Origin: Vibrio cidicii
GTDB lineage: Bacteria; Pseudomonadota; Gammaproteobacteria; Enterobacterales; Vibrionaceae
Direction of reading: 5' to 3'
Assembly (NCBI RefSeq): GCF_009763805.1
Contig: NZ_CP046804.1
Coordinates: 806,001-870,000, forward strand
DNA length: 64,000 nt
Position numbers and translations under genes: made by a program. Of the stretch, positions 4,227-61,542 are shown piece by piece. How positions within the stretch are numbered: the first letter of the stretch is position 1; every line of letters starts with the position of its first letter. A model generated the notes under the pieces. The model ran no database searches. It had not been told where the DNA came from and was given only the letters and a program-made list of their open reading frames with translations.

Positions 4227-5598
4227 CTACTCCTTGATGAGGTCCGCACCGCCCAAACTTTGGTAAAGCGTGGCGAGATTGACCAATTGGTTGTAACGGT
4301 TTTCCAGTACGGAAGCCTTAGCGCTGCGCTCGTTTCTCTTGAGCATCGAGTAGCGTCGCGATATCAATCGCCCCATATTGGTATTGGCTGCGATAAATTC
4401 GCGCCACTTCAGCGGCATTGTCATACTGACTTTGCAACTTTTCGGCTTGGAAATGGTAATTCTCTTTTGCCGAGAGCGCATTCTCCACGTCAGCGAATGC
4501 CGCATACAAGGTTTGACGATACGCAATGATCGCAGCTTGATACTTCACGTCTGCAATGTCTCGGTTGAGCTGCATCTCATTCCAGTTGAGAAACGGTAAA
4601 GTCAGATCGGCCCCAAGCGTACCAAGCGGATCGCTTAGCAGTTTACGCAGTTCCGTCGAAGAGCCACCCAAAGCGCCTGTCAAGGTCAACGCAGGAAAGT
4701 AGCTGTTGTCACTGTAATCTTTTGTTGCTAGGGCGGACTTAAGCTCTAGCAGCGCTTGTTTAACATCGGGGCGACGGGCGAGCACATCGGCTGGCACGCC
4801 AGCAGCGATCTCGGGCAGGGCAGACTCAGGTAACGCGGGGATCTGCGCGGCCAGATCCTGTGGCGGCTGGTCGAACAACAGGCTGAAAGCATTCACGGCC
4901 TCGCTTCGTTGCTGCAAATAGTTGCGATGGGTCGCTTCTAAACCCGCCAAAGTTCGTCTGGCTTCCAGCACATGAATTTTGGACACAGAGCCGTGACGAT
5001 ACTGACTTTCACTTAGCGCAAGCGTTTCTTGTGCATCCTGAATGTCATGGCTGCTAAGTGCCACTCGCTGATTCAAATAGCCAATCTGCCAATAAAGCTG
5101 AGCGGTGGTCGCAACCAGGCTTTGCGCCGTTGCTTCGCGCTCCTCTTGCGTCGCCAGTGCGGTCCACATCGCGGCATCTTCCGCCGCCGCCAGTTTACCC
5201 CACAAGTCCAGCTCATAACTCACGCCCAGTTTGGCTTGGTAGTTTGCCGAACTGTCTCCGCCTTCAAGGGATTGACTGCGACTGGCCGCAAGGTTGGCTG
5301 ATAAGTCGGGGTGAGTGTCACTTACCGCCAGCCCGGCTTGTAACCTTGCTTGTTTCAGCGTCAAAGTGGCCAAAGCTAAATCATTGTTGCTAGCGAGTAC
5401 TTTCTCTACCCACTGTTCAAGCTGCGGATCTTGAAAACGCTGCCACCAATGGCTTACAAGTACGCTAGATGGCTGAGAGTAAGTTTGCCACTGCTCAGGG
5501 ATGTGCAGATTTTGTTCTGGCAAGGTTGAACGAGAAGCGCAGCCACCGAGCAACAGCAGAGAAAGCGCCAAAGTGCAATAACGTGGATTCATCATCAT
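4227..5598 (-). CDS. TolC/NodT-family outer membrane efflux lipoprotein (frameshifted in this sequence)
   Basis: Outer membrane factor of a tripartite exporter; the third gene of a macA-macB-OMF operon. The N-terminus has a lipoprotein signal with lipobox LLLLGGC followed by Ala (Cys about residue 20). Two OEP repeats follow, with typical DLWGKL and ADVLARRPDVKQA segments. As written the frame stops at LLDAQEKRAQR. Deleting one T from GTTTC at 4332-4336 joins it to ENERSAKASVLENRY and the conserved ending LVNLATLYQSLGGADLIKE, giving about 456 residues, normal for the family. The frameshift is of the GAAAC type seen throughout the window. The start overlaps nothing: macB ends directly upstream at 5599. 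Confidence 0.88.
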
Positions 5599-7557: not shown

Positions 7558-8745
7558 CAGAAGCGTATCCCCTGTGGTCCCATACGACGACCTGATGAGG
7601 TCGCGCTTTGCCCTGGCATGCCGAGAATCACTTGTTCGCCTTCCGCTAAGCCTGAGATAATTTGTGCGTTGACTTTGTTGTTGATGCGGACAGTGACATC
7701 ACGCAGAACCTCTTTACCATTTTCCAAAACGGGCACTTGATAACGATCCTTGGCTCCGGGTTGGCGAATCAATACCTGCGAGGGGACCAACAAAGCATCG
7801 TTGGCTTGGTCCAGCACCACCGATACTTGCGCTGTCATACCAATACGCAGAACGCGATCCGGGTTGTCAACCTCAAATAGGCCGTGATAGTAGATGGCTT
7901 CATCGTTGCTGACTGACAGGTCTTTATCGTCGCCATCCATTAGCGTAGGGCCCGGTTCAATCGCACGCAAAGTGCCGTGATAGCGCTTGTTTCGGTTTGC
8001 CTAGAATGGTGAAATAGACGGGTAATCCGGGGTGGACATTGACCACATCGGCTTCGGAAATCTGTGCTTTGATGGTCATTTTGTCCAGCTTTGCCAGCTC
8101 AATAATGGTTGGCGTGGTTTGGTTGGCATTGACCGTTTGTCCCTCTTCCACCGCGCTATAAACAACGGTGCCGTCAAATGGGGCGCGAATGGTGGTGTAA
8201 CCTAAATCCAGTTTGGCGTTATCGACGCTAATTTTTGCGCGTTCCAGTTCGGCTTTCAGTTGCTCCAGCTCCGCTTTATAGATGGTTAACGACGCTTCGG
8301 CGCTTTCGTAATCCGAGCGTGAACTGGCGTTTTCTGCCAGCATGCCTTTTTGCCGGTTGTACTCAGCTTGGGCTTGCTGGATTTGTGCCTGTTTGGCGCG
8401 TATTTGCGCATTGAGGCTGTTTAGTGCTGCATTGGCTTCTTTAAGGCTGTTTTGCTGAGTCAGGCTGTCTATCTGCGCGACCAGATCATCCTGTTTCAGT
8501 TCGTCTCCTAACTGGACGGCGAGCTTTTCGATCTGCCCAGAAACTTGCGCGCCGACAGCGACCAACTTGGACGCTTGCAGCATGCCAGTTGCCAGCACCG
8601 TTTGTTCTATGTTGCCGCGACGGACGGTTTCGGTCGCAAAGCTCAAAGGCGATTGTTGCGGATAAAAAAAGTAGCCGACCGTGCTGGCGAGCAGGATGAT
8701 TGCCAGAAATATCAGCAGTTTTTTCTTGAGGGTGGCTTTTGACAT
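7557..8745 (-). CDS. macA: MacA-type periplasmic adaptor (frameshifted in this sequence)
   Basis: HlyD/MacA membrane fusion protein. One N-terminal helix ([20 protein letters not shown]), a lipoyl half ([14 protein letters not shown]), a coiled-coil hairpin around residues 95-180, the second lipoyl half ([15 protein letters not shown]) and beta-barrel and membrane-proximal domains. The frame breaks after FTILGKPKQ. Removing one T from GTTTC at 7989-7993 gives [18 protein letters not shown], the family's conserved stretch, and about 395 residues. A TTG at 8760 is an alternative start; ATG 8745 is preferred. First gene of the operon with macB (1-base overlap) and the outer membrane factor. Confidence 0.88.
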
Positions 8746-8892: not shown

Positions 8893-8907
8893 CATTAAAA
8901 GGGTGAA

Positions 8908-10269: not shown

Positions 10270-10285
10270 TTTGATTACCTCAAAA

Positions 10286-11915: not shown

Positions 11916-12522
11916 TTAGCTTAATTTCACCAATTGCTGCTGCATGGCGTGAATGATTTGCGCCGTCATTCCCCAGATGAAATGATGCTGGTAGGGAATG
12001 GCGAACACGCGATGATGCGACTGATTGACGCGAAATTTGGCACTTTTCAACTGTTGGCGATCAAGAAGATGGCGCACAGGCACTTCAAACACCTCCTCGA
12101 CCTCGTTTCTGTCGATGCGCGTTTGGTAATCAGCGGCGACAAAAGCCAAGATTGGGGTCACTTTATAGCGGCTGACCGTCACCAGTTTCGGGCATCTGGC
12201 CGAATACAGAGATCTGTGATGGCGCAATGCCCACCTCTTCAAACGTCTCTCTGAGCGCGGTGGCCACTAGCGACGAATCGTCGGGTTCAAATTTTCCGCC
12301 GGGAAAACTGATTTGCCCCGGATGATGTTTGAGATGCGAAGCGCGTTTGGTGAGGATCACATTCAGCCCATGGCTACGCTCGACAAAACCGACCAATACC
12401 GCGGCTTTTCTCAGCTGAGTGGGATTGAGATGGGCCACGCGGCCTAAACTTTCGGCATGGTAACCAACCGGAAGGTGCAACTGAAACTTTTGCAGTAGTG
12501 TGTCTCTATTTAGCTCAAGCAA
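11916..12522 (-). CDS. nudL: Nudix CoA pyrophosphatase-like hydrolase (frameshifted in this sequence)
   Basis: NudL/YeaB-type Nudix hydrolase, about 201 residues once repaired. The Nudix box is split across GGKFEPDDSSLVATALRE then TFEEVGI, that is G-x5-E-x7-REvxEE-x-G form (residues about 73-96). The family's UPF0035 segment PGQISFPGG precedes it. The frame as written ends at QMPETGDGQPL; deleting one T from GTTTC at 12185-12189 gives QMPELVTVSRYKVTPILAF, the conserved continuation. Acts on CoA derivatives or other nucleoside diphosphate-linked compounds. The order pabB-nudL on one strand, 43 bases apart, is conserved in gammaproteobacteria, so co-transcription is likely. Confidence 0.88.
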
Positions 12523-16109: not shown

Positions 16110-17487
16110 ATGAAGAATATTACCCGCGAAGTGAATGACCTCATCCATCGAAGCTTGGATTCACATTTGCGCGTCGCCGTGACAGGTTTGTCGCGTGCCG
16201 GCAAAACGGCGTTTATCACGTCCTTAGTCAATCAACTGTTGCACTCCTCGACTCACGACAATTTACCTTTACTGAGTTGCGCTCAAGACAAACGCCTGAT
16301 CGGCGCAAGGCGCGAGCCACAAAGTAACATGATGGTGCCCAGATTCGCCTATGATGAAGCGATGGAGCACATTTGCCAAACGATGCCGCAGTGGCCGCAG
16401 CCTACGCGGGATGTGAGCGAAATTCGCTTAGCGATCAAATATCGCCCACAAAAACGCAGCCGGAAATTACTCGGTAAAACCTCGGTCTTACATCTCGACA
16501 TTATCGATTACCCCGGTGAGTGGTTGTTGGACTTACCCCTGCTTGATCTGGACTTTAACGCTTGGTCAAACAGTCAATTTGCCGCTTTAAAAGGGCGACG
16601 TGCTGAACTGGCGCAAGATTGGCTCAATAAGTTGGCAGAGCTCGATCTTGAGGGAGACGTCAATGAAAAGCAGTTGCAGCAACTCTCCGAAAGCTACACC
16701 GACTATTTGCACCGCTGTAAAGAGGCTGGGCTGCATTGGGTGCAACCGGGACGCTTTGTTTTACCGGGGGAAACTGGCGGGCGCACCTGTTCTGCAGTTT
16801 TTTCCTTGTCGTTTCGATGCAGCAGCCGAGGTGAAGAAAAACAGCAATTTAGAGATGCTGAAAAAGCGTTACCAAGAGTACCAGCAGAAAGTCGTCAAAG
16901 GCTTTTACAAGCACTATTTTGCCACCTTTGATCGCCAAATTGTGCTGGTGGATTGCTTGCAGCCACTCAACGCGGGGAGTGAGTCGTTTTATGATATGCG
17001 CGAGGCACTTGAGCAGATCATGAAGAGTTTCCGCTACGGCAGAAGTGGGCTGCTCAAACGTCTTTTTGCCCCCAAAATCGACAAAGTGCTGTTTGCCGCC
17101 ACCAAAACAGACCACATAACGCCGGATCAACATGCAAATTTAGTCTCTTTGCTGCAACAGATGGTGCATCCAGCTTGGCAAACCGCCGCTTATGAAAACA
17201 TCGAGATCAGCTGCATATCCATGGCGTCGGTGCGTGCTACGCAGGCGGGTTTTATCGCCAATGGCAGTGAAAGTGTGCCCGCCATTCAAGGTCACACTCT
17301 GGATGGACGTTCACTGACGCTGTTTCCGGGTGAAGTGCCAAAGAAAGTCCCTGATGTCGATTTTTGGCAGCGCAGCGGCTTTGATTTCACCGCTTTTCGT
17401 CCTCTGTCTGCCGATTGGCAAGAGCCGCTACCACATATTCGCCTCGACAAAGCGTTAGAGTTTTTGCTGGGAGATAAACTGCAATGA
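16110..17487 (+). CDS. ycjX: YcjX-family P-loop ATPase/GTPase (frameshifted in this sequence)
   Basis: DUF463 (YcjX) protein, about 458 residues when repaired. The P-loop [10 protein letters not shown] is at residues 26-35 and the DxxG-type switch is [15 protein letters not shown]. The frame breaks after GRFVLPGE; removing one A from GAAAC at 16770-16774 continues as [14 protein letters not shown] and on to the natural end [10 protein letters not shown]. YcjX and YcjF accompany the phage-shock/envelope stress genes in many gammaproteobacteria, and the order ycjX-ycjF-tyrR is conserved. Its stop overlaps the ycjF start (ATGA). The exact nucleotide specificity and role are not established here. 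Confidence 0.9.
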
Positions 17488-20726: not shown

Positions 20727-21315
20727 ATGCAAAGAATGGAAAAACAGTTGGCGCTGCTGATGGAGTTAGACAAGCTCAAATCGGTTTTGCGCCGCACACG
20801 GGTGAAAAGCGCGGATAAGCGGTTAGAAAACAGCGCCGAACACAGCTGGCATGTTGCGCTAATGGCATTGCTGTTTGCAGAAACACGCTAATGAGCCAGT
20901 GGACATCAGTCGCGTGGTAAAAATGTTGCTGCTGCATGATGTGGTGGAGATTGATGCGGGCGACACCTTTGTTTATGATGCCGCAGCTTCAGAGCAGCAA
21001 GCAGAAAAAGAGTTGGTTGCGGCGCAGCGTCTTTTTGGCATGCTGCCTGACGATCAGCGCGATGAGCTCTCAGCGTTGTGGCATGAGTTTGAAGAGGCGC
21101 AAAGTGCCGACGCCAAATTTGCCAAAGCGTTGGATAGGCTGATTCCCATGTTGCTCAATTTTCATAATCAAGGGCAGAGTTGGCGTGAACATAGCGTTAC
21201 ACGCGAGCAAGCCCTGACGATTAACCGGAAAATTGAGCTTGGTTCTCACGCTTTATGGGAAAAAGCGCAAGAAATTATTGAACAAGCGACCCAAAACGGG
21301 TGGTTAAAAGCGTAA
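20727..21315 (+). CDS. HD-domain hydrolase, YfbR/HDDC2-like (frameshifted in this sequence)
   Basis: About 195 residues when repaired. HD metal ligands are visible as SAEHSWHVALMA (first His), LLLHDVVEIDAGDTF (HD pair) and a distal KALDRLIPMLLNF (Asp). This pattern is that of the HD_3 family, whose known members are 5'-deoxynucleotidases. The frame stops at LLFAETR; removing one A from GAAAC at 20880-20884 gives LLFAEHANEPVDISRVVK. The ATG at 20727 lies two bases after the acetyltransferase stop. Function as a deoxynucleotidase is inferred from family only. Confidence 0.85.
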
Positions 21316-22008: not shown

Positions 22009-23428
22009 ATGCGTCAATATCTTAAGTACATTATTCCGATCCTCATTCCGGCGATTATTTTGCTTTTGCCACTCTCCGCTTTCCCCTTTGAAGGCATGAC
22101 GTTGGTGCAACAGCGCGTCATTGCCATCTTCCTGTTAGCGGCTCTATGTTGGGTATTTGAGCCGATCCCTATTTACGCCACCTCGGTTGTGATCATCGTG
22201 TTAGAACTGTTGTTGGTCTCGAACAAAGGCTTGTACCTGTTTCGAGTGGGAGAAGGGAGCGCTCAGTTTGGTAAGCTACTCTCCTACAACGAGATCATGG
22301 CGACTTTTGCCAGCCCGATCATCATGTTGTTTTTAGGTGGCTTCTTCTTAGCGATGGCGGCAACCAAATACCGTTTAGACGTCAACCTCGCTCGGGTGCT
22401 GCTCAAGCCTTTTGGTCAAGATCCTAAGTTCGTGATGCTAGGGCTTATGTTGATCACCGCTATTTTCTCGATGTTTATGTCAAACACCGCCACAACAGCC
22501 ATGATGCTTTCCATCTTAACGCCGGTCATCGCCGTGTTTGGGCCCAAAGATCCGGGGCGGATTGCGTTTGCGCTGTGCATTCCGGTCGCCGCCAACATCG
22601 GTGGCATCGGTACCCCGATTGGAACACCACCTAACGCCATCGCCTTGAAATACTTAGTTGGCGATAACCTGATCACTTTTGGGGAGTGGATGATGTTTGG
22701 CGTCCCTTTTGTGGTGATTATGATGGCGTTAGCTTGGCTTTTGATCAGCCGATTGTTTCCGGCAGAAATGCCAAAAATCGAGTTATCGATCAAAGGTAAG
22801 TTTCTGAAAACGCCGAAAGCGATTGTGGTTTACGTGACTTTTGGCCTAACCATTTTACTCTGGCTGATGGGCTCTGCGCATGGTATGAACTCATACACAG
22901 TCGCGCTTATCCCTGTCGCTATTTTCTCTATCACAGGCATTATCAACAAAGAAGATCTGAAAAAGATCTCTTGGGATGTGCTCTGGTTAGTTTCGGGTGG
23001 TATCGCCCTTGGCCTTGCATTGGACAAAACTGGCCTTGCTGCGCTGGTGGTGCAGAGCATTCCGTTTGACCTGTTTCTCACCCTTGGTAGTGCTGTTTGG
23101 CGCGGCTTTCCTTTGTCTTGCGATGGCGAACTTTATGTCGCACACCGCCACGGCCAACTTACTGATGCCGATTATGGCGGCGCTTGGCACGTCGATGGCA
23201 TCACTCAATGAACTCGGCGGCGAAGTGACTTTAATTTTGGTAGTGACTTTCGCGGCATCTCTGGGGATGTCTTTGCCAATCAGTACACCACCAAACGCGC
23301 TGGCACATGCGACAGGCAATGTGCAGAGCAATCAAATGGCTAAAGTCGGTGTGATACTCGGAGTTGTCGGGGTATTGCTCAGCTTTGTCATGGTTTGGGT
23401 ACTCCACGCAGTCGGACACATTGGTTAA
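22009..23428 (+). CDS. SLC13/DASS-family anion transporter (frameshifted in this sequence)
   Basis: Sodium-coupled di/tricarboxylate or sulfate transporter, about 472 residues, with roughly 11 hydrophobic helices. The two SNT-type substrate motifs are FMSNTATTAMML and FMSHTATANLLMP, each followed by a proline-rich loop (GTPIGTPPNAIA and LPISTPPNALAHATG). The frame breaks at PFDLF; deleting one T from GTTTC at 23073-23077 gives PFDLFSPLVVLFGAAFLC. ATG 22009 is preferred over GTG 21976 because AGGAAGAGAAG precedes it. The histidine kinase starts three bases after its stop, suggesting that transport and signalling are coupled. Substrate unknown; C4-dicarboxylate is plausible. Confidence 0.88.
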
Positions 23429-25236: not shown

Positions 25237-26557
25237 TTAGGTCGCTGGTTGAATATTATTGCGTCCGGCATGCTTTGCTTCATAAAGTTTACTGTCTGCC
25301 AAACGCAATGATTCTTCCAGTGAGCCGTTTAGCAAGCAAAAACCACCGGAAATGGTGACATTTGGTGCTTGGTTGGCTTGCGCAATATCGGTGCGAATAC
25401 GTTCTAAGACAACCCGTGCATCTTCCGCAGTATTGGTCTGAATCAGCAGGAGAAACTCCTCTCCGCCAATGCGAAATGCATAGTCGCTTACTCGGATACG
25501 GCTTTTGATCACGTTGGCGACGCGACGTATCACCTGATCGCCGATGTCATGCCCGTAGCGATCATTAATCAACTTAAAGTGGTCAATATCCAACATGCCG
25601 ACAAAGTAGCGGCTGCTTGACGTAATTTTCTTTTCTATTTCCAGCAGATAGTGACGATTGTGCAGCCCTGACAGAGCGTCTAAATAGGTGATCTTTTTCA
25701 GTTCTGATTTGTCTTTGCGTAGCCGATACAAGTAGTAAGACACGCCAAGTGTTAAGGTGACAAGCAGCAAAAACAGATAGAAATATTTGGGGAGTAGATC
25801 CTCACTACGAACGACTTTCAACAGCAAGTTTTCCTTACCATTTAATACACCGATATTTTGATAGACCACAGTAAAGTCGTCATACTCCACGGTACCGGAA
25901 TGTTTGCGAGTGCGATTGAGCTCTTGCTGCAAAAGCGGGTGGGTATCCTCCAAATAGCTGTAGGAGGGAATGCCCAAATAGGAACTGGAATAGACAAAGC
26001 CATCCAAACCAAGCAGTAGCATGTCTTTTTGATCGACACTAGCGAATAGATTGAGATTGACAGTCAGAAACGAGATAGCCCTGTAAAATACCGTCGGCGT
26101 AGATGGGGGCAAATTCGAGAAAATGGCCTTGTTCTGCTTCAAGTAAAGTCTGCACTTGGGACTGATTGAGGTTACTGGTATAGAACCGATTGTAAGCAAG
26201 AATACGATCGTAATAGCGATAGTCTGGCTCTGGGATTTTGCTCACCACTTGCATAGCAACCACCAGATCTTGCTCACTGAGTAGGTGCTGAGCCAAGTCA
26301 TCAAACAGTTTAGGATAGATTGCATATTGTTTCACCACTTCGCTGTAGCGAAGCGAAAGGTAACTGGATACCAACTGCTTACGTAAGATTAATGTTTCCG
26401 CGGTTTCGCCAAGTTGACTCGACAAGCTCTGCAACTTTTCTTGTTTGATGTAGTTCATTGGCGTGTTAAAGAGAAAAATCACCGCCACCATGAGTAGCAG
26501 GCTTCTGAATTCAACCGTCGCTTTAGAAGGGGAGACCCCTGAATAATAGAGAACCAT
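25237..26557 (-). CDS. Membrane diguanylate cyclase, GGEEF (frameshifted in this sequence)
   Basis: About 439 residues when repaired. Helix 1 is near residues 15-32, a periplasmic sensor domain runs to about 265, and helix 2 (YFYLFLLLVTLTLGVSYYLY) leads to a GGDEF domain. The active site is GGEEF, with an inhibitory RxxD site five residues before it (RVSD). It should make cyclic-di-GMP. The frame breaks after DGILQGYLV; removing one A from GAAAC at 26067-26071 (plus strand) joins LTVNLNLFASVDQKDM. The sensory ligand is unknown. Confidence 0.88.
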
Positions 26558-26685: not shown

Positions 26686-28399
26686 TTAGTCGACAGGTAT
26701 CGGGGCGAGCGTGTAGCGGCTGGCAGAGGCAATCGATAGAGGTTTGGAGAACCAATATCCTTGCAGATAGGTCGCGCCCATCTTGCGAAAGGTTTTGTAC
26801 ATTTCTGGCGTTTCGATCCCTTCAATCACCACATCGATTTTGTTTTTCTGGCATAGGTTGATTAAAAAGGCCAAATACTGTTTTGAATCACTGTTAGTGA
26901 CCGTTTCGCCATGCCATTGACTTGTCGATTTTGATTTGGCTCATTGGTAAGTCAAAGAAGGTGTTGAGCGAGCTGTACCCAGAGCCAAAATCGTCGAGTG
27001 AGAGATTAAACCCTAATTCTGCCAGCTGCTTTAGCTGTTCGATGGCCAAAAGATTGTTATCGAGGATCAGTGTTTCAGTCAGTTCGATGACTAAGTTTTT
27101 AGGCGCGATTTGATATTCGCTGACAATCTCGTGCACCCGGCTTGGAAAATTGCTGTTGAGCAGTTGCAGCACGGAAACATTGACGTTAACTCGAGTATTG
27201 CGCTGATGGCGTTGATTGTAATCGCGAATGAATTCGCAAGCTTTGCGCAAGACAAAGTAACCAAGGTCGACAATGAGCCCCTTGTTTTCCGCAACCGGAA
27301 TAAACTCGTCTGGGTATATTTCGCCAAATTCTTCGCTGCGCCAGCGAACCAAACTTTCAAAACTGGCGACGTCTAAACTATTGGCACAGACAATCGGTTG
27401 AAACTTAACCGCCAAAGATTGCGACTCAATCGCCGCTTTAAGTCCTTGCTCTATATAGAAAAAGCGATCCACCACTTGTTGGGTGGTTGCGCTGTAAACC
27501 GCAATACGATTGGCTTTTTTCTTGCTGGCAAACTGGCTGGTGCGGGTGGCTTTGCGCAGGATCTCTTCGGCACTGAGAGCGGCGTTTAATTTGGGATAAA
27601 TTCCCATACTGATGCCACAGCCAAGCAATTGCCCTTGCTCCATAACCGCATCGTGATAACGCGCTTTGATCTTCTCGCAGATATTGGTGAGTTGTCGATC
27701 GGTAAAATTGCCTTCTATCATGATGGCAAAGTCATCATCGCTGACCCGATAAAGCTTGCTGACTTGTCCGGGAAGATGGCTTACCGCAGTGAGCATACTG
27801 TGCACTACGTGATTGAGAATTTCGGTACCGTAGTGGCTTAAGTACGATTTGATCTCTTCAATTTGTATGTAGATCAAAGAATAGGGAAGAGTGGTTGCCC
27901 GAGAAAACTCGTCAATGTCCAGCAATAAACGGCTGCGATTGGCCATGCCTGAAGCATTATCATGAAAGGCCACTTGATGGATGTAACTTTCCATCAACTT
28001 GCGCTCTGAGATGTCTTTATGGCTACCAACCATAAAACTGCCATGTTCAGAGTGACGAGTTACCGCTGTGCCTTCAATCCAAACGTATTGGCCATTGGGC
28101 TTACGCACACGATATTCTGTCGTTACACGTGAATCGACCGATTCTAGATGCTCATCCACTTTGGATGAAAGGCGAGCTCTATCTAGCGGGTGAACGATCT
28201 CGAGCCAAGCCCCGAGTTCAATCACGCCAACGCTGATCCCGAATTGCTCGTAAAATTGATGATTGTAAAACACCATCACGCCTTGTTCGTCCATATGGAA
28301 TAGACCTTCACTAAATACATCAAAAATATGCATAAAGCGTCGTTCAAGAATATGATCAAAATCATCGCTGATTTTGTCTGGAGTTGGTGTTATATCCAT
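26686..28399 (-). CDS. PAS-GGDEF-EAL protein with degenerate GGDEF (frameshifted in this sequence)
   Basis: About 570 residues, soluble. PAS/PAC about 25-145 (RVRKPNGQYVWIEGTAV). The GGDEF domain (150-300) has SDDDF instead of GGDEF, so cyclase activity is unlikely. The EAL domain (about 315-565) reads FESLVRW at the signature but keeps NVNVSVLQ, ELTETL, LDDFGSGYSS, IKIDKS, VIEGIET and LQGYWFSKP, so phosphodiesterase activity is likely. The frame stops at DKSMAWRNGH; removing one T from GTTTC at 26903-26907 gives AWRTVTNSDSKQYLAFLINL and the end of the domain. Located beside a cyclase gene on the same strand. Confidence 0.88.
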
Positions 28400-28689: not shown

Positions 28690-29566
28690 TTAAATTGTCA
28701 GTGCAAACCACAACAGTGCAGGCAAACTAAACAGACTGAAAAAGTTACCAAACAACACAATGGAAGCCACTTTATCGGGCTCAATATGAAACCGCTCTGC
28801 AAATAAGTAGTTCATTACTGCTGCAGGCAGCATAGTAAACAGAACCATCATTTGCATTTGTAGGGCTGGTAGCGGAACAACATAGTAGATAATCAAGAAA
28901 GCGATGAGGCCTGTGAGCAAAGACTGCAATGTGGCAATAACGCCGACTTTGAGCCCGTCAAGCTTAAGATTGACCATTTGTGCACCGAGTGACAGTAGCA
29001 TAACTGGAACGGCCGCTTGCCCGAGTAAGGCGGAGGCTTCGAGCAGTGGCTGCCAGACGATCACACCGCTCAGATTACACGTGACCGCAGCAAAAGCGGC
29101 GATAAATACTGGCATTCGGAAAATGTGCAGCAGGGAAACTGCCTTTACTTAAGAGCGCCAGTCCAAGGCTAATGTGGATGCATGCCGACATCACAAACAG
29201 CAGTACGGCACTGGATTGAGCCGCCGCGCCAAAAGTGTAGCTAAACAGTGGGATGGCTAGATTGCCACTGTTACGAAACATATGCGGTGGTGCCCAGGTT
29301 TTAAAAGGTAAGTGGTAAAAGCGGCACACAGGGATCATCACTAAGCCTGGAACCAAAACGGCGATGACGGACGCATAAATTAGTGGCAGTTGGTTTGCAT
29401 CCAGAGGCATGGTTGCTAGTGAAGAGAAGACTAAAGCGGGCAGGAAAACATCCATATTAATGCGGTTGATCGGCTTAAAGTCCGGTTTTAGAAAGTGACC
29501 AACGGCAAAGCCCGCGCCTGCTAAAGCGAACACGGGAAAGAGGATGCTAAAAACTTTGACAAGCAT
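28690..29566 (-). CDS. AEC (auxin efflux carrier) family transporter (frameshifted in this sequence)
   Basis: About 291 residues with roughly ten membrane helices. FRNSGNLAIPLFSYTFG is the crossover motif typical of AEC proteins, and the C-terminal half has LLEASALLGQAAVPVMLLSLG. The frame breaks at SKGSF; removing one A from GAAAC at 29135-29139 (plus strand) continues as LLHIFRMPVFIAAF. The start is placed at ATG 29566 (MLVKVFSILFPV), because the 34 residues upstream are polar and unlike the family. Substrate unknown; family members move malate, malonate or auxin-like acids. Confidence 0.8.
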
Positions 29567-29906: not shown

Positions 29907-31113
29907 ATGCAGTACAATCCTGAAAATTCAGTCAAAATCGACATCGCCAATTTAAGTATTGGGATGTTTGTTACCGCGATTCAAAACAGTGAAAAAGTGA
30001 ATCTAGCGCATCCTGGTCGGGTGCAGTCGCAAACAGCGATTGCTCGCTTGTTCGAAAGTGGCGTAAAGTTTGTCTGGGTCGATAAAAGCTTATCGGCGCG
30101 TAATTGTGTCATCACACCATCCATTGAAAGGCGCCAAGAGCCGCCCGAAGAAGAACCTGTCGCCTCTATTCCCGCTCGAAACTCGTCATGGGCGAGATTC
30201 AAGACAGAAGAAAGCCAAAAAGCTCATTGCAGAGGCAAAGGGCTTAGCACAAAAACTGCTGAATCAGACTTTCGAAGGTAAAGTCATTCTCGTCGATGAG
30301 ATTGACGATTGGGCAGAGGAGATGATCGAATCGGCTTTGGTTGATTCTGACGCGTTGCACTGCGTTTCAGCGCTACGGCAAAAGGATTCCTATTTGCTTG
30401 AACACTCTGTCAATGTTGCTTGCCTTCTGGTTACTTTTGGCAAGCATTTAGGTCTTGATCGTGACACTCTCAAACAAATGGCGATTGGCGGGATTATTCA
30501 CGATATCGGCAAAATTAAAGTCGATGATGCTATTTTGCACAAGCCTGGAAAATTGACGCCAGAAGAGTTTGAACACATGAAATTGCATCAAGTGTTTGCG
30601 GAAGAGATCATCGTGCACGTTGAGGGACTGAGTGACATCAGCCGCGATGTTTGCTTAATGCACCATGAGAAACTGGATGGTAAAGGCTATCCGAAAGGGC
30701 TTAAAGGTGATGAGATTCCGATGCATGGTCGAATGAGTTGCATTGTTGATATCTATGATGCGCTTACTGCCGATCGCTGTTACAAGCAAGGCATGAGCTC
30801 GGCGGAGGCATTTAAGATCATTCTCAGTTTGACGCCATTTCATCTCGACGCTGACCTTGTATACAAATTCATTAACTGTATCGGTATCTATCCGGTAGGC
30901 TCGATTGTGGAGCTAAGTGATGGTCGTGTTGGCATCGTTTGGAGTTCTAATGCGACTCAGCCACTTAAACCTGAAGTGAAATGTTTCTACTCGCGCAAAT
31001 ACAAACGTTATGTGGATGTTGCGATGGTGGATATTAAAAACAGTACACTCAAGATTGAAAGGGCAGTCGCTCCTTCTTCGTTAGAAGTGGACGCAAAGCC
31101 CTTTTATGACTGA
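29907..31113 (+). CDS. HD-GYP cyclic-di-GMP phosphodiesterase with DUF3391 (frameshifted in this sequence)
   Basis: About 401 residues when repaired. N-terminal DUF3391 (KIDIANLSIGMFVTAI, with VWVDKSLSA), then an HD-GYP domain: EHSVNVACL, GGIIHDIGKIKVDDAILHKP, HHEKLDGKGYPKGLKGDEIP and DIYDALTADRCYKQG. These contain the HD pair and the intact GYP loop, so hydrolysis of cyclic-di-GMP is expected. The frame breaks at SIPAR; removing one A from GAAAC at 30178-30182 gives PARTRHGRDSRQKKAKKLI. Cytoplasmic; the partner sensed by DUF3391 is unknown. Confidence 0.9.
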
Positions 31114-38378: not shown

Positions 38379-39645
38379 CTAGTGGCTTTGAATCGAAATC
38401 TGATAGCAAGTATGGATATGTTTTTTAAGGGTCTTAAATACATCTGGGCACAATTTGCCGTCTTCGACCATTTGCGTCATTAATGCCTCTATTTCCTCTT
38501 GTTGCATTCGACCACGATACGGTCTGTCTTGCGACAACGCCTGAAACACGTCTGCCACTGCAATAATGCGTGATGGCACATCCAATTCGGCTTCCGTTTT
38601 GTGATATGGGTAACCGGACCCATCCAAACGTTTCGTGATGGTTAGAAGCCCATTCGGCAATCTTTGATTTTGGAAAAACTTTGTGCAGCGCCAGTTCAGT
38701 ATCAATCGTGTGTCGCTTGATGCGAGTGTACTCTTGATCGGTTAAGCGCCCTTGCTTGTGCAAAATTTCATCTGGTGTTTTCAGTTTACCGATGTCATGC
38801 ACCAGTCCGGCGATGAAAATCATCTCTTGTTCGTGTTCGGTCAAAGCGCTTTTTCCGGCCAGGAAACGTGCCACTTCCGCGACTTTCTGCGAGTGTTGGT
38901 AGGTAAACGGACTTTTGGCGTCGACAATGCGAGCGAGAAATAGCCCGAGCGTCATTAAATCTTGTACCGTCAACTGCTTTTGCAACCAGTCAATGTGATC
39001 AAAACCCAAGCCAATCGTCTCGATGTTTTCCGATTCCATGGCAAACCAGAAACCATCTGTCATGATAAGCGGCACCATCGCTTGGCACATATCAGGGTTA
39101 AACAGCGTTCCTGCGTGAGCCATGACGCTATCGGCGATCATCTCTTCGTGTAGCGTGACGAGATCAGAATGGCAGTCGGTCGCGTAGTGGGCACGTAAAA
39201 AATCCAATCGATCGGAAAGATAGAGAAGTGCGGCAATATCTTTGTCAAAGGGGTCAATATCGAGCTGTTCCAATTCATCCCAGCGGGTGTGGTGGTAAAG
39301 AATCGGTTTGGCAAATTGAGCCAAAATGTTGCATTGCTGCAGCGACTGATACCCCCGTATACAGTGTGCTTGTGCATCTTGAGGCATGAGTTTTTCTAGC
39401 AGCATCAAATGCTCTTTGGTTTCTGAAACACCGCAATCGTGCACCATTCCAGCGAAGTAGCTGAACTCTGCTTTGCGAATATCCCAGCCCATTTTTAATG
39501 CGCATTTGTAGGCGATGTAGGCGACTCGGTGATTGTGATGGGTGTCATCGACGCCAACGTAATCTAAGGCCCTAGCAACCCAGATCAGCGCTTGTTTTAG
39601 GTCTACTTCGAAGTGTGCAGTGCCTAAGGAGCATGTCTCGTTCAT
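38379..39645 (-). CDS. Tandem HD / HD-GYP domain protein (frameshifted in this sequence)
   Basis: About 421 residues. An N-terminal HD domain (DTHHNHRVAYIAYKCA, FAGMVHDCGVS) is followed by an HD-GYP domain (QHSQKVAEVARF, AGLVHDIGKLKTPDEILHKQ). As written the frame ends after NHHETFGW; removing one T from GTTTC at 38630-38634 gives NHHERLDGSGYPYHKTEAEL and VADVFQALSQDRPYRG, restoring the GYP loop. It is thus a likely cyclic-di-GMP phosphodiesterase with a second HD domain. Without the correction it would lack the motif that defines the family. Confidence 0.88.
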
Positions 39646-42670: not shown

Positions 42671-43811
42671 ATGGACTTGTGGAGTGAATCAGCAAATTGC
42701 GCGTATTTTTATAATGCTTCATCATTAAATGATCAGCTCAAAGGCATACTGCATAGAATGCAAGTTCATGATGCCAGCATTGAGCGTATATCCTTTGCCG
42801 TCTTCGACGAAGAGCATGGGCTGCTAAAAACGTATGCTGACAGCAGCGCTTTAACGGAAACTGGCTCACTACCGCGCACATTTGGACGATTTCCCCGCCT
42901 TAACTCGCTGCGTCAACGAGAAAAGCTTCCGCATTATTGATGATCTTAACGAGCTCTCCCCGAGCGTGCATGTCAAAGCCTTGATCGATTCCGGTTACCG
43001 CTCTTCGATTGCCGCGCCCTGTTTTGAACAAGATAAATTTATCGGCTTTCTGTTTGTCAACTCGAGAAAGGTGGCGGCGTTTACCCAAGAATTGGTGGAA
43101 AAGATGAAGCCCTATTTTGACATCATCCAATTTGCCATTTTCTCCGAATATCAAATCGTGCATGCGATTGCTGAGTGCGCGGAGAAAACCCAAGCCTTAT
43201 CACCTTCTTACAACAAAGATTCTCTGGCGCATAAAGAAAGGATCAGTCGGTACACTCGCATTATTGCCAGTGAAACGGCAGAGGTATGGGGGTTTGATGA
43301 TGAAACCATCGAGCATTTGTGCCTTTTTTCTCGTTTCCACGATATTGGCAAGGTAAACCTCGCCATCGATCTTTTGTGTAAAACCGCCAATCTGGATGGC
43401 AGTGAAACGTCGAAAATGCGCAACCACATCGAAAGTGGCGTTGAGATAATGGACAAGATCATTGAGTCTCTGGGAAATCCGCACCATCCGAGCATCACAC
43501 TGTTGACGCAAGTGATGGCTTATCATCACGAGTTCCTTGATGGCTCTGGTTATCCATTTGGCTTGCAGGGTGAGCAAATCCCGCCAGTGGCACGAGTCGT
43601 GTCGGTGGCTAATATTTTTGACGCATTAACCACTCATAGGCCCTATCGGCAAGCTTGGTCTATCACCCATGCGTTGCTGGAAATGGAAAAAATGGTCGCG
43701 GAAGGAAAACTCGACAAGGCTTGTGTCAACGCTTTGAGAGAACATCAGGATAAACTAAAGCAGATCGTGGCACGTTTTCCTGAGCACGATCCCAAAGATG
43801 GCTTTTATTGA
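42671..43811 (+). CDS. GAF-type HD-GYP protein (frameshifted in this sequence)
   Basis: About 379 residues. ATG 42671 is preceded by GGAGCAAAGAG, preferred over an upstream ATG at 42611. Residues about 15-170 look like a GAF sensor (SIERISFAVFDEEHGLLKTYAD, then RSSIAAPCFEQDKFIGFLFVNS). The HD-GYP domain has FSRFHDIGKVNLAIDLL, HHEFLDGSGYPFGLQGEQIP and NIFDALTTHRPYRQA, so phosphodiesterase activity is expected. The frame breaks at SALTE; removing one A from GAAAC at 42857-42861 gives TELAHYRAHLDDFPALTRC. Confidence 0.88.
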
Positions 43812-44864: not shown

Positions 44865-45414
44865 TTAGAAATCGGCTTTCTTGACAAAATAGGGATTATT
44901 GTATTTTTTCTCTGGTCCGAACTCTTTTAACACCAGACGGTTCCAAAGCGCCTTATCGAATTTCTCTTTTGGAATGGAAGGGTAGAGCGTCTCGACTTCT
45001 TCCCAAGCGAAACTCATGAACTCTTTCTTCTTGATCTGATTGTATTTTCTCGCAACTTGGTTGTGTTTCTTGATCCACTCTTTTTTATATTGGATGAGCA
45101 GTTTCTTGTGCCTGATCTAGTGGAAAGCGTGATAAAAATACTCGCTTATACGAGACTTTTCGATCCACCATGGTACGCATCGCCGTTTGAATATACTTAC
45201 CATGATGTGTAGTGGAGATTTCCGCTTCATCGACCAAAGGAATACACCATCCCTTAGGAAAAAAATCGGGCTTTTGATACTGCTGGTTGCGTACCGTTAG
45301 AGCGTTGTGCAGCACCAGGTCGGACGTACCGCGGAAAGTTTGTTGCCATTTAGCAATGCGAATTTGCAGTGAGCCAGGCAAGCGATATATATGAGTAAAT
45401 TTGTCTTCGTTCAT
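44865..45414 (-). CDS. Unrecognised protein, about 182 residues (frameshifted in this sequence)
   Basis: As written the frame from ATG 45414 stops after LDQAQETAHPI. Removing one T from GTTTC at 45101-45105 gives LDQAQELLIQYKKEWIKKH and the frame then runs on for 72 codons to TAA at 44865. The extension is Lys/Trp-rich (FMSFAWEEVETLYPSIP, then ALWNRLVLKEFGPEKKY) and ends at a terminator, so it is very probably real. No membrane helix or signal peptide. I do not recognise a family. The start is ATG 45414 rather than the in-frame TTG 45429. Confidence 0.75.
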
Positions 45415-51280: not shown

Positions 51281-52582
51281 CATTAGGTTCGTTTTCATAC
51301 AAACTCACTTTGCTTTTCTTCTCCACCGTGTTGTTGGTCGGAGTGGTGACTCATTCATTGTGGAATGTGATTGAAGAGCAAAAGAACATTGAAAACGAAA
51401 TGGAGATTATTACTCAAGCTCAGTTCAACTTGGAACTTCTGCGCAATCAACTCTCGCTTTATCTGCAATACAAAGACGATGAAAGTTTTACGCAACTGAC
51501 TCTTGCGCAGAACAAAATGACGGAGCAAATCCACAATACTAAGCGTTTTCAAAAGGTCATGACTAATTTAGAACGCATGAACAACACTTTGGAAAGGCTG
51601 TTACTGCATGAGAAAAATCTCGCTGGAGCCAATCTGCAGGCGAAAGAAACTGCTGCACTCCCGTTACAACATGATAGTGCAGAGTATGGACGAGGAGTTA
51701 TCTGCTTTGCAGCGTAATGTTCTCGAAGAGCGACTGAACAAGTTGCGCCAAGCGGTATTTACCAGTGGTTTTTCACTGGCTTTTTTTACCCTATTGATCA
51801 GCAGCGTCACTTACTTGATGTTAAAGCGCTTTCGTAAAGGCTTTAAGGTACTGCGTTTAGGGCTAGATGAAATGCGCAGCGGAAATATGGAGAGCCGGAT
51901 CACCTCGACAGAACTGGATGAAGAGTTCGCGGTCATGGCAAATTGTTTTAATTCGATGAAAGACTCCCTACAACAGAGCACCGTTACTCGCGAGCATTTA
52001 GAGCAAGAAGTGTTGCGGCAAACGGCGGAGCTTCGTGAACAGAAAGAGCAGTTGGTATACCTATCAGAGAAAGACCCGCTGACTGGGTTGAATAATCGAC
52101 GCGCCTTTATGGCGGCGGTAGAAAATGCCACAGCGAAAGCGAATCGTACTGGATTAAAAATGGCCTTGCTGTTTATTGATTTAAATAAGTTTAAAGAGAT
52201 AAACGACACCTTCGGCCACTATGCGGGAGACGAAATACTACGTCAAGTGGCGCGCCGCATGGAGGTTTGCTTTCGCAACACCGACATTTTGGGGCGTATT
52301 GGTGGTGACGAGTTTGTCGTGTGTCTCGATTTACTGAAAGACTACAATGGCGTACTGCCAAAAGCAGAAAAGTTTGCTCGCATGGTCAGTGAGCCGATCG
52401 ATTTCAACGGAGAAAAGCTGCACGTTTATCCAAGTATTGGCATCAGCTTTTATCCTGATCAAACCCGCTCCATCAACCACTTGGTGAAGCTGGCTGATGA
52501 AGATATGTACCGCGCCAAAAATAGTGAGTCGGTGCTCATTTGGAGCAGTTATCTCTTCCCAGAAGAAAAGCAAATTTCTTAG
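51277..52582 (+). CDS. Membrane diguanylate cyclase with HAMP, GGDEF (frameshifted in this sequence)
   Basis: About 434 residues. Helix 1 at residues 10-28, a mostly helical periplasmic domain, helix 2 near 165-185, HAMP, coiled coil (REHLEQEVLRQTAELREQKEQ), and a GGDEF domain with intact GGDEF and an RxxD inhibitory site (RNTD) five residues before it. The frame breaks at QAKE; removing one A from GAAAC at 51646-51650 gives QAKELLHSRYNMIVQSMDEE. The start overlaps the binding-protein stop (ATGA), so the two are made together; the binding protein is the likely input. Confidence 0.88.
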
Positions 52583-55788: not shown

Positions 55789-55866
55789 AATCGATTCTCC
55801 TTTGCATGTTGAGCGTATGGTATGACGAGCTTCAATCCGTTTCGCGAAGGCTTGCAAAATCTCGAG

Positions 55867-56919: not shown

Positions 56920-57106
56920 GAAATGTCCTGTTTTGGCTTTGCGCAGTGCCAGTCAATAGAGTGTTTTAGCATAACGCTTTGAATCTGAACAATATAGCCC
57001 TAAAGAACCAATACCGGTTTTGCCACGTGCTAAAACCGGATTTAGGACGCTTTCGCCCAGCTCATTGGCCACTATAAGCACATCACAGATTAAAAGGAGA
57101 AGCGTG

Positions 57107-57933: not shown

Positions 57934-58027
57934 GAGAAGCGGTAAGTGCAGACCATTGGTGGATAGACTTTAATGATACTTTGCGTTATACAACATGCTT
58001 CCCATAATCGTTTTTGCGAGGCAGTGC

Positions 58028-58669
58028 ATGTTTGAGAGTTTTGGTGTGATTAATATTTGGACCTATATGCTGGGGCTGCTGATGATCATTTTGGCCCCCG
58101 GTCCCAACTCTATCTATGTGCTCAAATCTAGCTCAACTTTTGGCATCAAAACCGGCTACAAAGCGGCGATGGGTGTACTGGTTGGTGATGCGATTTTGAT
58201 CCTGCTCTCTTATTTAGGTGTGGCGTCTTTGATCCAAACCTCACCGCTGCTGTTTACCATCATTCGTTATCTGGGCGCGGCTTATCTGCTCTATTTGGGC
58301 TTCAAACTGATCCAACAATATTGGCAAAAGCCTGAGTTCGATGATCAAGGTGTTGCGCGTCCGCGCAAAGTGGAAAAGGTGTTTGCTAAAGCGCTCACCT
58401 TGAGCCTCACCAATCCGAAAGCGATCTTGTTTTATGTCTCCTTCTTTATTCAGTTTATTGATTACACCTATGAACACACTTGGATTTCGTACCTGATCCT
58501 TGCCACGATTTTGGAGGTGTTCAGCATTGTCTACCTGAGCGTGTTGATTTTTGTCGGTACCTCGCTCACGCAGCTGTTTAAGAACAATCAGACACTGAGC
58601 AAATTAGGCAACGGATTGCTTGGGCTGCTGTTTATGGGGTTTGCAGCGCGACTTGCCAGTTTAAGTTAA
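58028..58669 (+). CDS. LysE/RhtB-family amino acid exporter
   Basis: A 213-residue inner-membrane exporter with six helices. The N-terminal LGLLMIILAPGPNSIYVLKSS is the LysE signature (PGPN), and GYKAAMGVLVGDAI and LTNPKAILFYVSFF are conserved. The closest type is LeuE/RhtB, which exports leucine and related amino acids. ATG 58028 is preferred over a start 11 codons upstream. A strong terminator follows. Confidence 0.9.
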   Translation: MFESFGVINIWTYMLGLLMIILAPGPNSIYVLKSSSTFGIKTGYKAAMGVLVGDAILILLSYLGVASLIQTSPLLFTIIRYLGAAYLLYLGFKLIQQYWQKPEFDDQGVARPRKVEKVFAKALTLSLTNPKAILFYVSFFIQFIDYTYEHTWISYLILATILEVFSIVYLSVLIFVGTSLTQLFKNNQTLSKLGNGLLGLLFMGFAARLASLS

Positions 58670-58683
58670 GCACCTAAAGATAA

Positions 58684-58715
58684 AAAACAGCCAGCATTTC
58701 GCTGGCTGTTTTAGT
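58684..58715. terminator. Bidirectional terminator
   Basis: AAAACAGCCAGC-ATTTC-GCTGGCTGTTTT between the exporter and the convergent Hsp70 gene. Confidence 0.9.
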
Positions 58716-58733
58716 TGCGAGATAAGCGACAGC

Positions 58734-61542
58734 TTAGTGACTGACCAAATGAAGACCGCTAGGAAGAGCATCGCCAAACACGCGTTTAGACTCGCTTTCA
58801 GAAAGCGCTTTGACCTCTTCGACCAAGCTTATCCACGCATCCGGCACTCGGCTCTGTTTCAGTTTGGTGAGCACTTGTTGGCGGAAATCTTCAGAGATAT
58901 CAAACAGACGATCACCTGTTTTACGACAAATCATCACCGCAGCGAAGGCGATCATCGGTTCTTTTTGCCAGTTTTGATCCAATAGCTTCGGTAACCATTG
59001 TTCCGCTTGCTCACGTGGAATGACACGATGTTGGCTTGCGTAGAGCGGTGTACGAGAGGCCAAACGGCCGATTGCCCACCAGTGTGCTTGTTCAAATTGG
59101 TTTTGATTCAGTGCTTTGCTCAAAAACCAACTGGTTAGCAAAACTTTGTCTTCCACTTCAAGATGCTCTAGAGACGCGGCCAGTCGAACCATGGCTTCGT
59201 AGCCCATATCTTGAGCGGCTTTTGCTGTTTGTGGGTTTTTCATCGCGCCAGGGTGCAAGTACTTGGCAATGTCGGCAAGCAGCGTTTCTTGTTGCTCTTG
59301 GTTTAAACCACCAGCAATACGGCGCCAGAATACCCACCAATCGGTCCAACCTTGATGATTTTGGAACTGGATTCCTTGTTGGTAGAGCCCCCACACTTGC
59401 TCGATACGCCAAGAATCGGTGGCATCACCAAAACCCGGGCGAAGAGAAAAGCCCGCTAAGCGCAGCCAGTTCTTTTCGTGTTGTTCAGAGCGGCGACGAC
59501 GTTTTCGGCCTTGTGCAAAGGCGTCAAACAAGTGGCGTAGGGTGGTGAAGTCCCATTCATCTCGCTTGCCAAGTTTGCGTTCAAGCTCTTTCGCTAACAC
59601 TTTGATCTCATTGCCTTCGCCACTTTTCTTGTTGCCACTATAGAGGCGAGTAATGAGTTCTTTGCACTCATTCAATCGTGGGTGAAGTGTGGCGTTCTCT
59701 TGTTCTTCGGCTTTTTTGTTGCGAACTTCAAACTCCAGTGCCCAACGTTTGTCCTCTTCTTCGACACTGACACACTCCATCTTCAGGGTGCCGACTTCGG
59801 TCAATTGACAGGCGAGTTGAACTTCCACACGCTCTTTCTGGTTTGCTTCTAATTCTGCGCCTTCCCCCTGCAATGTAACGATATACGGGGGAAGTGGGGT
59901 GAAGATATCAGGGTCGATGTCCGCCATGACGCCGTTCTGAATCGCCACATGGTGCGACAAGGCATCGTGCGTTGAAGTAAGCAGGTTAAAGCGTACAGGT
60001 TCACCAAGGGTGAGCGAGAAGCGTCGCCCAGTGAGACGAATTTCTTGTCCTTCTTCGGTGCCTTTTGCAAGCAAACAGAGCGCTTTGCCCATTTTGTTTT
60101 TTTCTTGCAGATGCAAAAAGTAAGACCGAGCAGAACCGCCGCCGATTTTTAGTTGTGCACCGCGGCGGGCCTTGGCAAAGGCTACGGCCCCTAATGCCAC
60201 CGACCAATCTGGATGCGGGTTATCAAGGACGGTGACCGGTGCGCCGCGCCAGCGACCGAGCAACTCGGTCATCCGCGCCGTGACGAGGTCACTGTTAAAC
60301 ACGCCGCCGTTCAACAACAGACCTACCGGAATGGCAGGTTGCTCACCCTCTGACTCTCCTAACGCAGCATGAGAGACTTGTTGGTGCTGAGATAAAAACT
60401 CGGCCACGTGTTTGCTCACTGCAGGATCAGCAACATAAGGCAAACCAAATTCGACCACGGCGCTGCGGCGTTTATCCGGCGTTTGAGTAAAATCAGAAAG
60501 CGGGAAGAAGCCGTCGAGGGCGATTTGATGAACTTCCTGTTTGTTCAAAGCGATGCTCTTGGTGCCGCCAAGCAGTTTGGAACCGCTGCCCAGCATGGTG
60601 ATCTTCACTTCTTCAGGTGCCTTGCTCGAGAGGAGTTGCTCTTTGGCTTTGCGTGTTTGTTGAATCAGTTTGGTGAGGCTGGCCGCATTGAGTTTCTTGC
60701 TTTGATTAAAGCGCTGCTCCGCTAAATGCGCGAGGGCCAAATCTAGGTTATCGCCGCCGAGCATGAGGTGTTCACCCACCCCGATGCGATCCAAGGCGAG
60801 TGCATCTTGGTTAAATTTTGCTTCAATCAAGCTTAAGTCGGTGGTGCCGCCACCGACATCGCAAACCAAAATCAGCGGGATTTCTTTTAATAACTCTGCG
60901 GCACTGTGCTGGTGGCGCGCATACCAGTCGTAGCAAACCGCTTGAGGCTCTTCGAGCAGAAGCACTTGGCTTAAGCCTGCCAGTTGAGCGGCTTCTAGGG
61001 TCAGCTTACGTGCAGTTTCATCAAACGATGCCGGTACGGTGACCACCACCTCTTGCTCTTCGAGCAGATTGCCCGGGTGGCGATGATTCCATGCTTGGCG
61101 AATGTGATTAAGGTAACTGGCACTGGCAATAACAGGGGAGACTTTCTCAACATCGCTGACCCCGGCCCAAGGCAGTATTTCTGAATGGCGATCAACCGCT
61201 TGATGAGAAAGCCAGCTCTTCGCGCTTGAAACCTGACGCCCTTCCACCTTCGCGCCCAGTTTCGCGTGCCCATTCACCAATGATCACATTCGCAATGTCG
61301 CCAGGCACATTTTGGTTTTCCCACGGTAAGGTGAGATCGGCAGGCGCGATTTGCCCGTTGGCAGGGTGGTAGCGAAAAGAGGGAAGCAGCGGTTTACGAA
61401 TCACTTCACCGGGGCCGATAAGCTGGTCAATATCGAAAAGGGAGACGTTGGATTGTTGTAAGTTCTCGGTCAGTTCGCAAAACGCGACCACCGTGTTCGT
61501 GGTGCCTAAGTCAATGCCGACAAGATAGCGAGGAGATGCCAT
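58734..61542 (-). CDS. Hsp70-family protein with C-terminal DUF3731 (frameshifted in this sequence)
   Basis: About 935 residues when repaired. The N-terminal actin-like ATPase domain has VGIDLGTTNTVVAF (phosphate 1) and LVCDVGGGTTDLSL (phosphate 2). No canonical DnaK substrate-binding domain is seen; instead there is a long helical DUF3731 region (residues about 560-930, with RRRRSEQHEKNWLRL). The frame breaks at GEWARE; removing one T from GTTTC at 61259-61263 gives WARELGAKVEGRQVSSAKSW. It follows a second Hsp70 gene and a DUF2760 gene on the same strand. A chaperone role is inferred from the ATPase only. Confidence 0.9.

What the first reader, a model, noticed from the sequence alone, without database searches (positions are those of the whole stretch)
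4332..61263. Sixteen frameshifts, all one extra base inside a GAAAC/GTTTC pentamer: a strand-symmetric DNA-level signature at GAAC/GTTC
Seen directly: genes break at GTTTC 4332, 7989, 12185, 23073, 26903, 31455, 38630, 45101, 61259 and at GAAAC 16770, 20880, 26067, 29135, 30178, 42857, 51646 (first base of each). In every case deleting one A/T from the triplet restores a continuous protein with the conserved family sequence across the joint, and the repaired span becomes a multiple of three. I found no frameshift at any other sequence. Random sequencing or mutational errors would hit many contexts, and real gene decay would include stops and deletions. Because GAAAC and GTTTC are both affected in coding sense, the cause is not ribosomal. 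Established: some Dnd systems put phosphorothioate at GpsAAC/GpsTTC on both strands, and only at a fraction of sites. Inference: the organism's GAAC/GTTC sites are partly modified (phosphorothioate or another backbone/base change) and a single-molecule base caller adds a base there. Intact GAAC sites exist too, e.g. in the fumarase gene near 14778, so the effect is partial.
Basis: partly seen in the sequence, partly recalled or inferred. Interest (0 to 1): 0.92.

Follow-up and report, generated by a model that had tools for sequence, protein, structure and literature searches.

The report
Sulfur-DNA marks misread as frameshifts
In this genome of a likely Vibrio species, about 3% of GAAC/GTTC sites carry one extra A or T compared with a close relative, which splits dozens of genes including one that is essential in other bacteria; these are likely sequencing misreadings of sulfur-modified DNA, predicted to be made by the Dnd defence genes that the genome carries, so unpolished genome assemblies may record where this hidden mark lies.

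Summary
All 16 pentamers are present; 15 align to a close relative, G098, and all 15 are one-base insertions. Over 283 kb, 49 of 1653 GAAC/GTTC sites of G098 read GAAAC/GTTTC here, against 1 of 35,060 sites in the 17 other two-base-run classes and 0 of 1606 in reverse. The insertions ignore genes (58 of 59 coding; other single-base indels 14 of 60) and split the only pheT locus found, so they are not living mutations. The genome carries dndB-E and dndF-H; no dndC, dndB or Dnd-linked methyltransferase was found in G098. Affected sites show the flank preference published for Dnd phosphorothioate sites (A/C before, G/T after: 32 of 49 versus 296 of 1382, p=1.3e-10; PMC9521924). A second dnd-positive species, G010, shows the same signature. 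Best reading: partial phosphorothioation at GpsAAC/GpsTTC, misread as +1 in an unpolished single-molecule assembly. Sulfur and platform were not testable. Sixteen other dnd-positive genomes of the genus, nine of the order and one E. coli pair lack the signature.

The parts
4332..4336 (-). GTTTC at a frame break in an outer-membrane efflux-type gene (TIGR01845); an intact copy exists in the relative
7989..7993 (-). GTTTC at a frame break in a periplasmic efflux-adaptor gene (MacA-like, TIGR01730); an intact copy exists in the relative
12185..12189 (-). GTTTC at a frame break in a CoA pyrophosphatase gene
16770..16774 (+). GAAAC at a frame break in a gene of 458 codons in the relative, no NCBIfam match at 1e-20
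20880..20884 (+). GAAAC at a frame break, gene of 215 codons in the relative, no NCBIfam match at 1e-20
23073..23077 (+). GTTTC at a frame break in a DASS-family anion symporter gene
26067..26071 (-). GAAAC at a frame break in a GGDEF (diguanylate cyclase) gene
26903..26907 (-). GTTTC at a frame break in a gene like c-di-GMP phosphodiesterases
29135..29139 (-). GAAAC insertion site; the relative's tetramer here is diverged; gene of 323 codons, no NCBIfam match at 1e-20
30178..30182 (+). GAAAC at a frame break in a gene weakly like NosR-family response regulators (below cut-off)
31455..31459 (+). GTTTC insertion site; the relative's tetramer here is diverged; gene of 917 codons in the relative, not scanned
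38630..38634 (-). GTTTC at a frame break in a gene weakly like NosR-family response regulators (below cut-off)
42857..42861 (+). GAAAC at a frame break, gene of 379 codons in the relative, no NCBIfam match at 1e-20
45101..45105 (-). GTTTC at a frame break in an MSHA-operon transcriptional regulator gene
51646..51650 (+). GAAAC at a frame break in a GGDEF (diguanylate cyclase) gene
55839..55843 (-).
61259..61263 (-). GTTTC in the overlap of two minus-strand open frames (58734-61280 and 61192-61542); not aligned to the relative, so unchecked by comparison

Best explanation
The extra bases are most likely read errors rather than mutations: the Dnd enzymes encoded about 136 kb upstream of the window are predicted to put sulfur into the DNA backbone (phosphorothioate, GpsAAC/GpsTTC) at a small, sequence-biased share of GAAC/GTTC sites, and a single-molecule, probably nanopore, base caller would then count one A/T too many there. 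Shown here: the insertion is confined almost wholly to GAAC/GTTC, hits about 3% of such sites on both strands, ignores genes and essentiality, is absent from the one close relative compared, in which no dndC or dndB was found, and follows the -1/+1 flank rule published for Dnd sites. Inferred: that the sulfur is present, that DndBCDE makes it, that the assembly rests on nanopore reads without short-read polishing, and that a site shows up only if most molecules carry the mark on both strands.
For: Motif-bound: 49 of 1653 GAAC/GTTC sites against 1 of 35,060 sites in 17 control classes; 0 of 1606 in reverse; highest of 136 tetramer classes. Not living mutations: 58 of 59 coding against 14 of 60 other indels (p=3.6e-19); the only pheT locus found is split in two frames. 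Machinery: dndE, dndD, dndC (split), dndB over curated or strong scores, plus DndF, DndG, DndH, in a stretch without aligned counterpart in G098; no dndC, dndB or TIGR04096 match in G098. Flanks: M at -1 in 42 of 49 versus 646 of 1382 and K at +1 in 38 of 49 versus 658 of 1382, as published for Dnd sites in Salmonella and in E. coli carrying its dnd cluster (PMC9521924). Share: 3% here; 3.9% of GTTC and 4.4% of GAAC flagged by nanopore in Salmonella (PMC9069010). Recurrence: G010, another dnd-positive species, 13 of 16 +1 frame-break zones hold the pentamer (3.3 expected) and 8 of 11 single-hit sites obey the flank rule versus 173 of 924 (p=1.7e-4).
Against: Of 18 dnd-positive genomes of the genus with at most 5 contigs only G000 and G010 show it; the other 16 give 4 of 43 zones (4.8 expected), nine of the order 1 of 34, and an E. 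coli dnd-positive pair had three plain indels and none at GAAC. This fits polishing or another platform but that was not checkable. At -2 the paper reports C; here G is raised at -2 (23 of 49) and C is not (10 of 49), while G at +2 (26 of 49) does match. Weak deviations also at -7, +4, +5, +6, +19. EcoWI-seq finds 12% of sites modified, more than the 3% here. TIGR04096 methyltransferase accompanies dnd in 17 of 18 of these genomes, so presence alone cannot tell sulfur from methyl.
Confidence: 0.85

Rival explanations
1. Another mark at GAAC/GTTC causes the misreading, for instance adenine methylation by the Dnd-linked methyltransferase (TIGR04096) or a mixed methyl and sulfur mark.
For: TIGR04096 lies beside dndB and accompanies dnd in 17 of 18 genomes tested. 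PMC9069010's Discussion notes that methyl and sulfur marks can share GAAC/GTTC.
Against: GTTC holds no adenine, so adenine methylation would mark one strand only, yet both orientations read +1. Only about 3% of sites are hit, low for a methyltransferase (established knowledge). The flank rule matches data from E. coli given the Salmonella dnd cluster (PMC9521924).
Confidence: 0.08
2. Ordinary single-molecule homopolymer errors, with no modification, that happen to favour GAAC/GTTC.
For: Homopolymer indels are the classic error of such assemblies (PMC10687267 passages); a few plain homopolymer indels also separate G000 and G098.
Against: Other two-base runs are almost untouched (1 of 35,060); only +1 and never -1 at the motif; a flank rule identical in -1/+1 to Dnd sites; seen in 2 of 18 dnd-positive and 0 of 8 dnd-negative genomes of the genus, though the platforms are unknown.
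Confidence: 0.05
3. The extra bases are real: gene decay, or a mutagenic effect of the sulfur mark or its restriction partners in living cells.
For: The change is tied to a motif and to dnd, so a mutagenic route is conceivable.
Against: No selection against coding sites (58 of 59 coding, 1322 of 1448 unaffected sites coding); the only pheT locus found is split; dndC itself is split, though its activity would be needed.
Confidence: 0.015
4. Programmed frameshifting or recoding at GAAAC/GTTTC.
For: Genes are broken at one recurrent pentamer.
Against: The relative reads GAAC/GTTC in continuous frames at nearly the same places; both coding orientations are affected.
Confidence: 0.005

Closest known systems
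Dnd phosphorothioation of the Salmonella enterica Cerro 87 / E. coli B7A type (GpsAAC/GpsTTC)
   Same: dndB, C, D, E with dndF, G, H; target GAAC/GTTC on both strands; small share of sites; M before and K after (PMC9521924 passages and one section). E. coli shows a similar convergent gene order.
   Different: Here sulfur is inferred, not measured; C at -2 is not seen; a TIGR04096 methyltransferase sits beside dndB, absent from the E. coli region shown.
Nanopore error-based detection of phosphorothioate (ELIGOS, PMC9069010)
   Same: Errors of native nanopore reads at GAAC/GTTC reveal the mark; 3.9-4.4% of motifs flagged (Results part 1 and Discussion read).
   Different: That work compares reads with an unmodified control; here one fixed error, +1, appears in a finished public assembly.
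Modification-mediated nanopore consensus errors in Listeria (PMC10687267)
   Same: Motif-bound consensus errors tied to a lineage-specific defence system (passages read).
   Different: There mismatches at GCAGC or GCTGG; here one-base insertions at GAAC/GTTC with a Dnd system. 'Phosphorothio' occurs 0 times in that main text.

Membership tests
Dnd phosphorothioation system | DndC, DndD, DndE modification core | tested here: met
   dndE 94.1 bits (cut-off 71.85), dndD 496.8 (245.85); dndC C-terminal piece 342.7 (290.4), N-terminal piece scanned apart
Dnd phosphorothioation system | DndB regulator | tested here: met
   TIGR03233 466.1 bits, cut-off 328
Dnd phosphorothioation system | DndFGH restriction partner | tested here: met
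   PADLOC DndF 5e-230, DndG 1.6e-186, DndH C-terminal part 2.5e-132
Dnd phosphorothioation system | DndA or a cysteine desulfurase such as IscS | not tested
   no search made
Dnd phosphorothioation system | sulfur in the DNA backbone | not testable with these tools
   needs LC-MS or iodine cleavage
Dnd phosphorothioation system, GAAC/GTTC type | small share of GAAC/GTTC sites on both strands, A/C at -1 and G/T at +1 | tested here: met
   read through the insertions: 49 of 1653 sites; 32 of 49 versus 296 of 1382 with both flanks
Dnd phosphorothioation system, GAAC/GTTC type | C at -2 and G at +2 over-represented | tested here: inconclusive
   G at +2 in 26 of 49 (0.26 of unaffected); at -2 G rather than C is raised
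Modification-mediated single-molecule sequencing error | error bound to a motif and absent from a relative lacking the system | tested here: met
Modification-mediated single-molecule sequencing error | error disappears in amplified DNA or short reads | not testable with these tools
   no reads held
Modification-mediated single-molecule sequencing error | recurs in other genomes with the same system | tested here: inconclusive
   2 of 18 dnd-positive genomes of the genus with at most 5 contigs (window genome included), 0 of 9 in the order, none in one E. coli pair; platforms unknown

The most novel reading that the evidence does not exclude
Unpolished public assemblies are base-resolution maps of the Dnd epigenome: each +1 at GAAC/GTTC marks a site that carries sulfur on both strands in most cells, so Dnd target choice can be read across species without any wet-lab work, and the Dnd complexes of this genus and of Salmonella obey one extended rule, M-GAAC-K.
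Probability: 0.6. Interest if true: 0.75.

Novelty: new variant of a known kind. Interest (0 to 1): 0.63.

Why it matters
How Dnd chooses its small share of sites is called unknown in PMC9521924. If assembly errors record the chosen sites, the question becomes testable on archived sequence from many species. It also warns that dnd-positive genomes assembled from single molecules alone can hold about a thousand false insertions (59 in 282.8 kb scale to 991 in 4.75 Mb), including one in dndC, which hid part of the modification system from a first search here.

Tried and rejected
The first test for a Dnd enzyme, with Pfam PF01507, listed two other loci and not dndC; the dedicated model found it. 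The frame-break scan was too strict at first (6 zones in G000, all 6 with the pentamer) and was rerun with lower thresholds; the picture stayed the same. E. coli: 204 of 5426 genomes match dndC-dndD; one pair was compared, chosen because its match was one base longer than its peers', and it was negative. Order-wide (394 genomes) and class-wide (369 genomes) dndD searches were used to look for split dnd genes; one split dndD in the fragmented G766 was not followed up. The 11 dndC-positive genus genomes with many contigs (29 over the cut-off, 18 scanned) were not scanned. A longer or bipartite methyltransferase motif was sought within 20 bases of 59 sites: besides -2 to +2 only weak deviations at -7, +4, +5, +6, +19 of 40 positions, no second half-site. 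Gene names were sought for 30 of the 58 coding sites only. Literature searches listed no title on phosphorothioate-caused insertions in assemblies; the library holds open-access papers only and I opened five papers (PMC9069010, PMC9521924, PMC10687267, PMC12506013, PMC10853773), most of them as passages.
Full report
What was checked. The window is 64 kb of a 4.75-Mb, two-contig genome, G000. Its nearest named relatives, judged by one protein, are Vibrio (76% identity at best), so the genus name is inferred. A relative, G098, is 97% identical over a 2.4-kb test stretch. I took 400 kb of each and aligned them; 282.8 kb aligned in 27 blocks at 92.5-97.4% identity, 55,990 bases of the window among them.

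The pattern is real and motif-bound. Taking every two-base run with good flanks, 49 of 1653 GAAC/GTTC sites of G098 are GAAAC/GTTTC in G000 (1384 the same, 220 otherwise different). In the other 17 classes the same kind of change occurs at 1 of 35,060 sites. In the reverse direction it occurs at 0 of 1606 GAAC/GTTC sites. Of 112 single-base insertions 59 lie in these pentamers; of 52 single-base deletions none do. Both strands are hit (GAAC 19 of 785, GTTC 30 of 868).

They are not living mutations. Coding status was judged ab initio in G098 (open frame of at least 80 codons, codon score above 4). Of the 59 insertions 58 are coding, as are 1322 of 1448 unaffected GAAC/GTTC sites. Of the 60 other single-base indels with good flanks only 14 are coding (p=3.6e-19). 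One insertion splits pheT, which the family search found at a single locus, in two frames; that gene is essential in well-studied bacteria (established knowledge). A cell is unlikely to live with these changes, so they most likely arose in reading the DNA.

The machinery is there. On one strand lie dndF, dndG, dndH, an HNH gene, an unnamed gene and a DndB/DpdB-like gene; facing them dndE, dndD, dndC, dndB, then a TIGR04096 methyltransferase and a PLD-helicase gene (C2:653.7-675.3 kb). dndC is itself in two frames beside a GTTTC, and the methyltransferase beside a GAAAC. The whole lies in a stretch without aligned counterpart in the G098 piece, and whole-genome searches of G098 gave no dndC (beyond chance-level scores), dndB or TIGR04096 match. 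E. coli records show a similar convergent order. A first search with a general Pfam model did not list dndC.

The flanks point to Dnd. With sites turned to read GAAC, affected sites have A or C before them in 42 of 49 cases (unaffected 646 of 1382), G or T after them in 38 of 49 (658 of 1382), and both in 32 of 49 (296 of 1382; p=1.3e-10). With all 59 sites it is 36 of 59 versus 379 of 1716. EcoWI-seq of Salmonella, and of E. coli carrying its dnd cluster, found M at -1 and K at +1 at phosphorothioate sites (PMC9521924; passages, one section). At +2 the published G is also raised here (26 of 49), but at -2, where the paper reports C, G is raised instead (23 of 49): a partial match. Native nanopore data of Salmonella flagged 3.9% of GTTC and 4.4% of GAAC (PMC9069010, Results part 1), near the 3% here; EcoWI-seq gives 12%. 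A consensus insertion would need most reads to err, so a lower share is expected (inference).

Does it recur? I scanned for places where coding changes frame as a +1 insertion would make it. In G000 44 of 66 such zones hold the pentamer (12.1 expected), in G010, another dnd-positive species, 13 of 16 (3.3 expected). G010 sites also follow the flank rule (8 of 11 versus 173 of 924, p=1.7e-4), and its dndD is in two frames with a GTTTC close by. Against this, the 16 other dnd-positive genomes of the genus with at most 5 contigs show 4 of 43 (4.8 expected), nine dndD-positive genomes of the order 1 of 34 (their motif is unknown), G098 2 of 20 (1.9 expected) and seven dndC-negative genomes 0 of 15. 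So the signature was seen only with dnd, but most dnd genomes scanned lack it. I read this as polishing or another platform, which I could not check since these genomes bear no metadata. One E. coli dnd-positive assembly with frameshifted dnd genes differed from its peer by three plain indels and none at GAAC, a negative result.

What is left open. The sulfur is not shown and the platform is inferred. A methyl mark by the linked TIGR04096 enzyme is not excluded, as that gene accompanies dnd in 17 of the 18 genomes tested; the lack of an adenine in GTTC, the low occupancy and the flank rule speak against it as sole cause. The literature searches listed no report of phosphorothioate leaving insertions in assemblies; the nearest are error-based read mapping (PMC9069010) and Listeria mismatch errors linked to a defence system (PMC10687267, passages).

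Noticed in passing
G000 C2:877155 (outside the window): A single insertion turns GTAC in the relative into GTAAC; GTAC is the minor Dnd motif named in PMC9521924. One case only.
   Followed up: no
G000 C2:641930-643381 (L115:1930-3381, minus strand): A Cas10-like type III CRISPR effector gene (PADLOC 2.8e-124) lies in the same unaligned stretch as the dnd genes.
   Followed up: no
G000 C2:669.9-671.9 kb: TIGR04096 Dnd-associated methyltransferase, split in two frames beside a GAAAC; present in 17 of 18 dnd-positive genomes of the genus tested.
   Followed up: partly
G010 C2:1206615-1208598: dndD of a second dnd-positive species is in two frames, with a GTTTC at 1207448 near the joint, and its second piece holds one TAG.
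   Followed up: partly
NZ_OZ259269.1, E. coli K12a, 3983309-4026706: dndD and dptF are annotated as frameshifted; against its peer the indels lie in plain G and T runs, not at GAAC.
   Followed up: yes
G000 and G010, genome quality figures: Contamination 3.23 (G000), and completeness 95 with contamination 5 (G010), in two-contig assemblies hinted at frame breaks; G206 has contamination 5 and no signature.
   Followed up: partly
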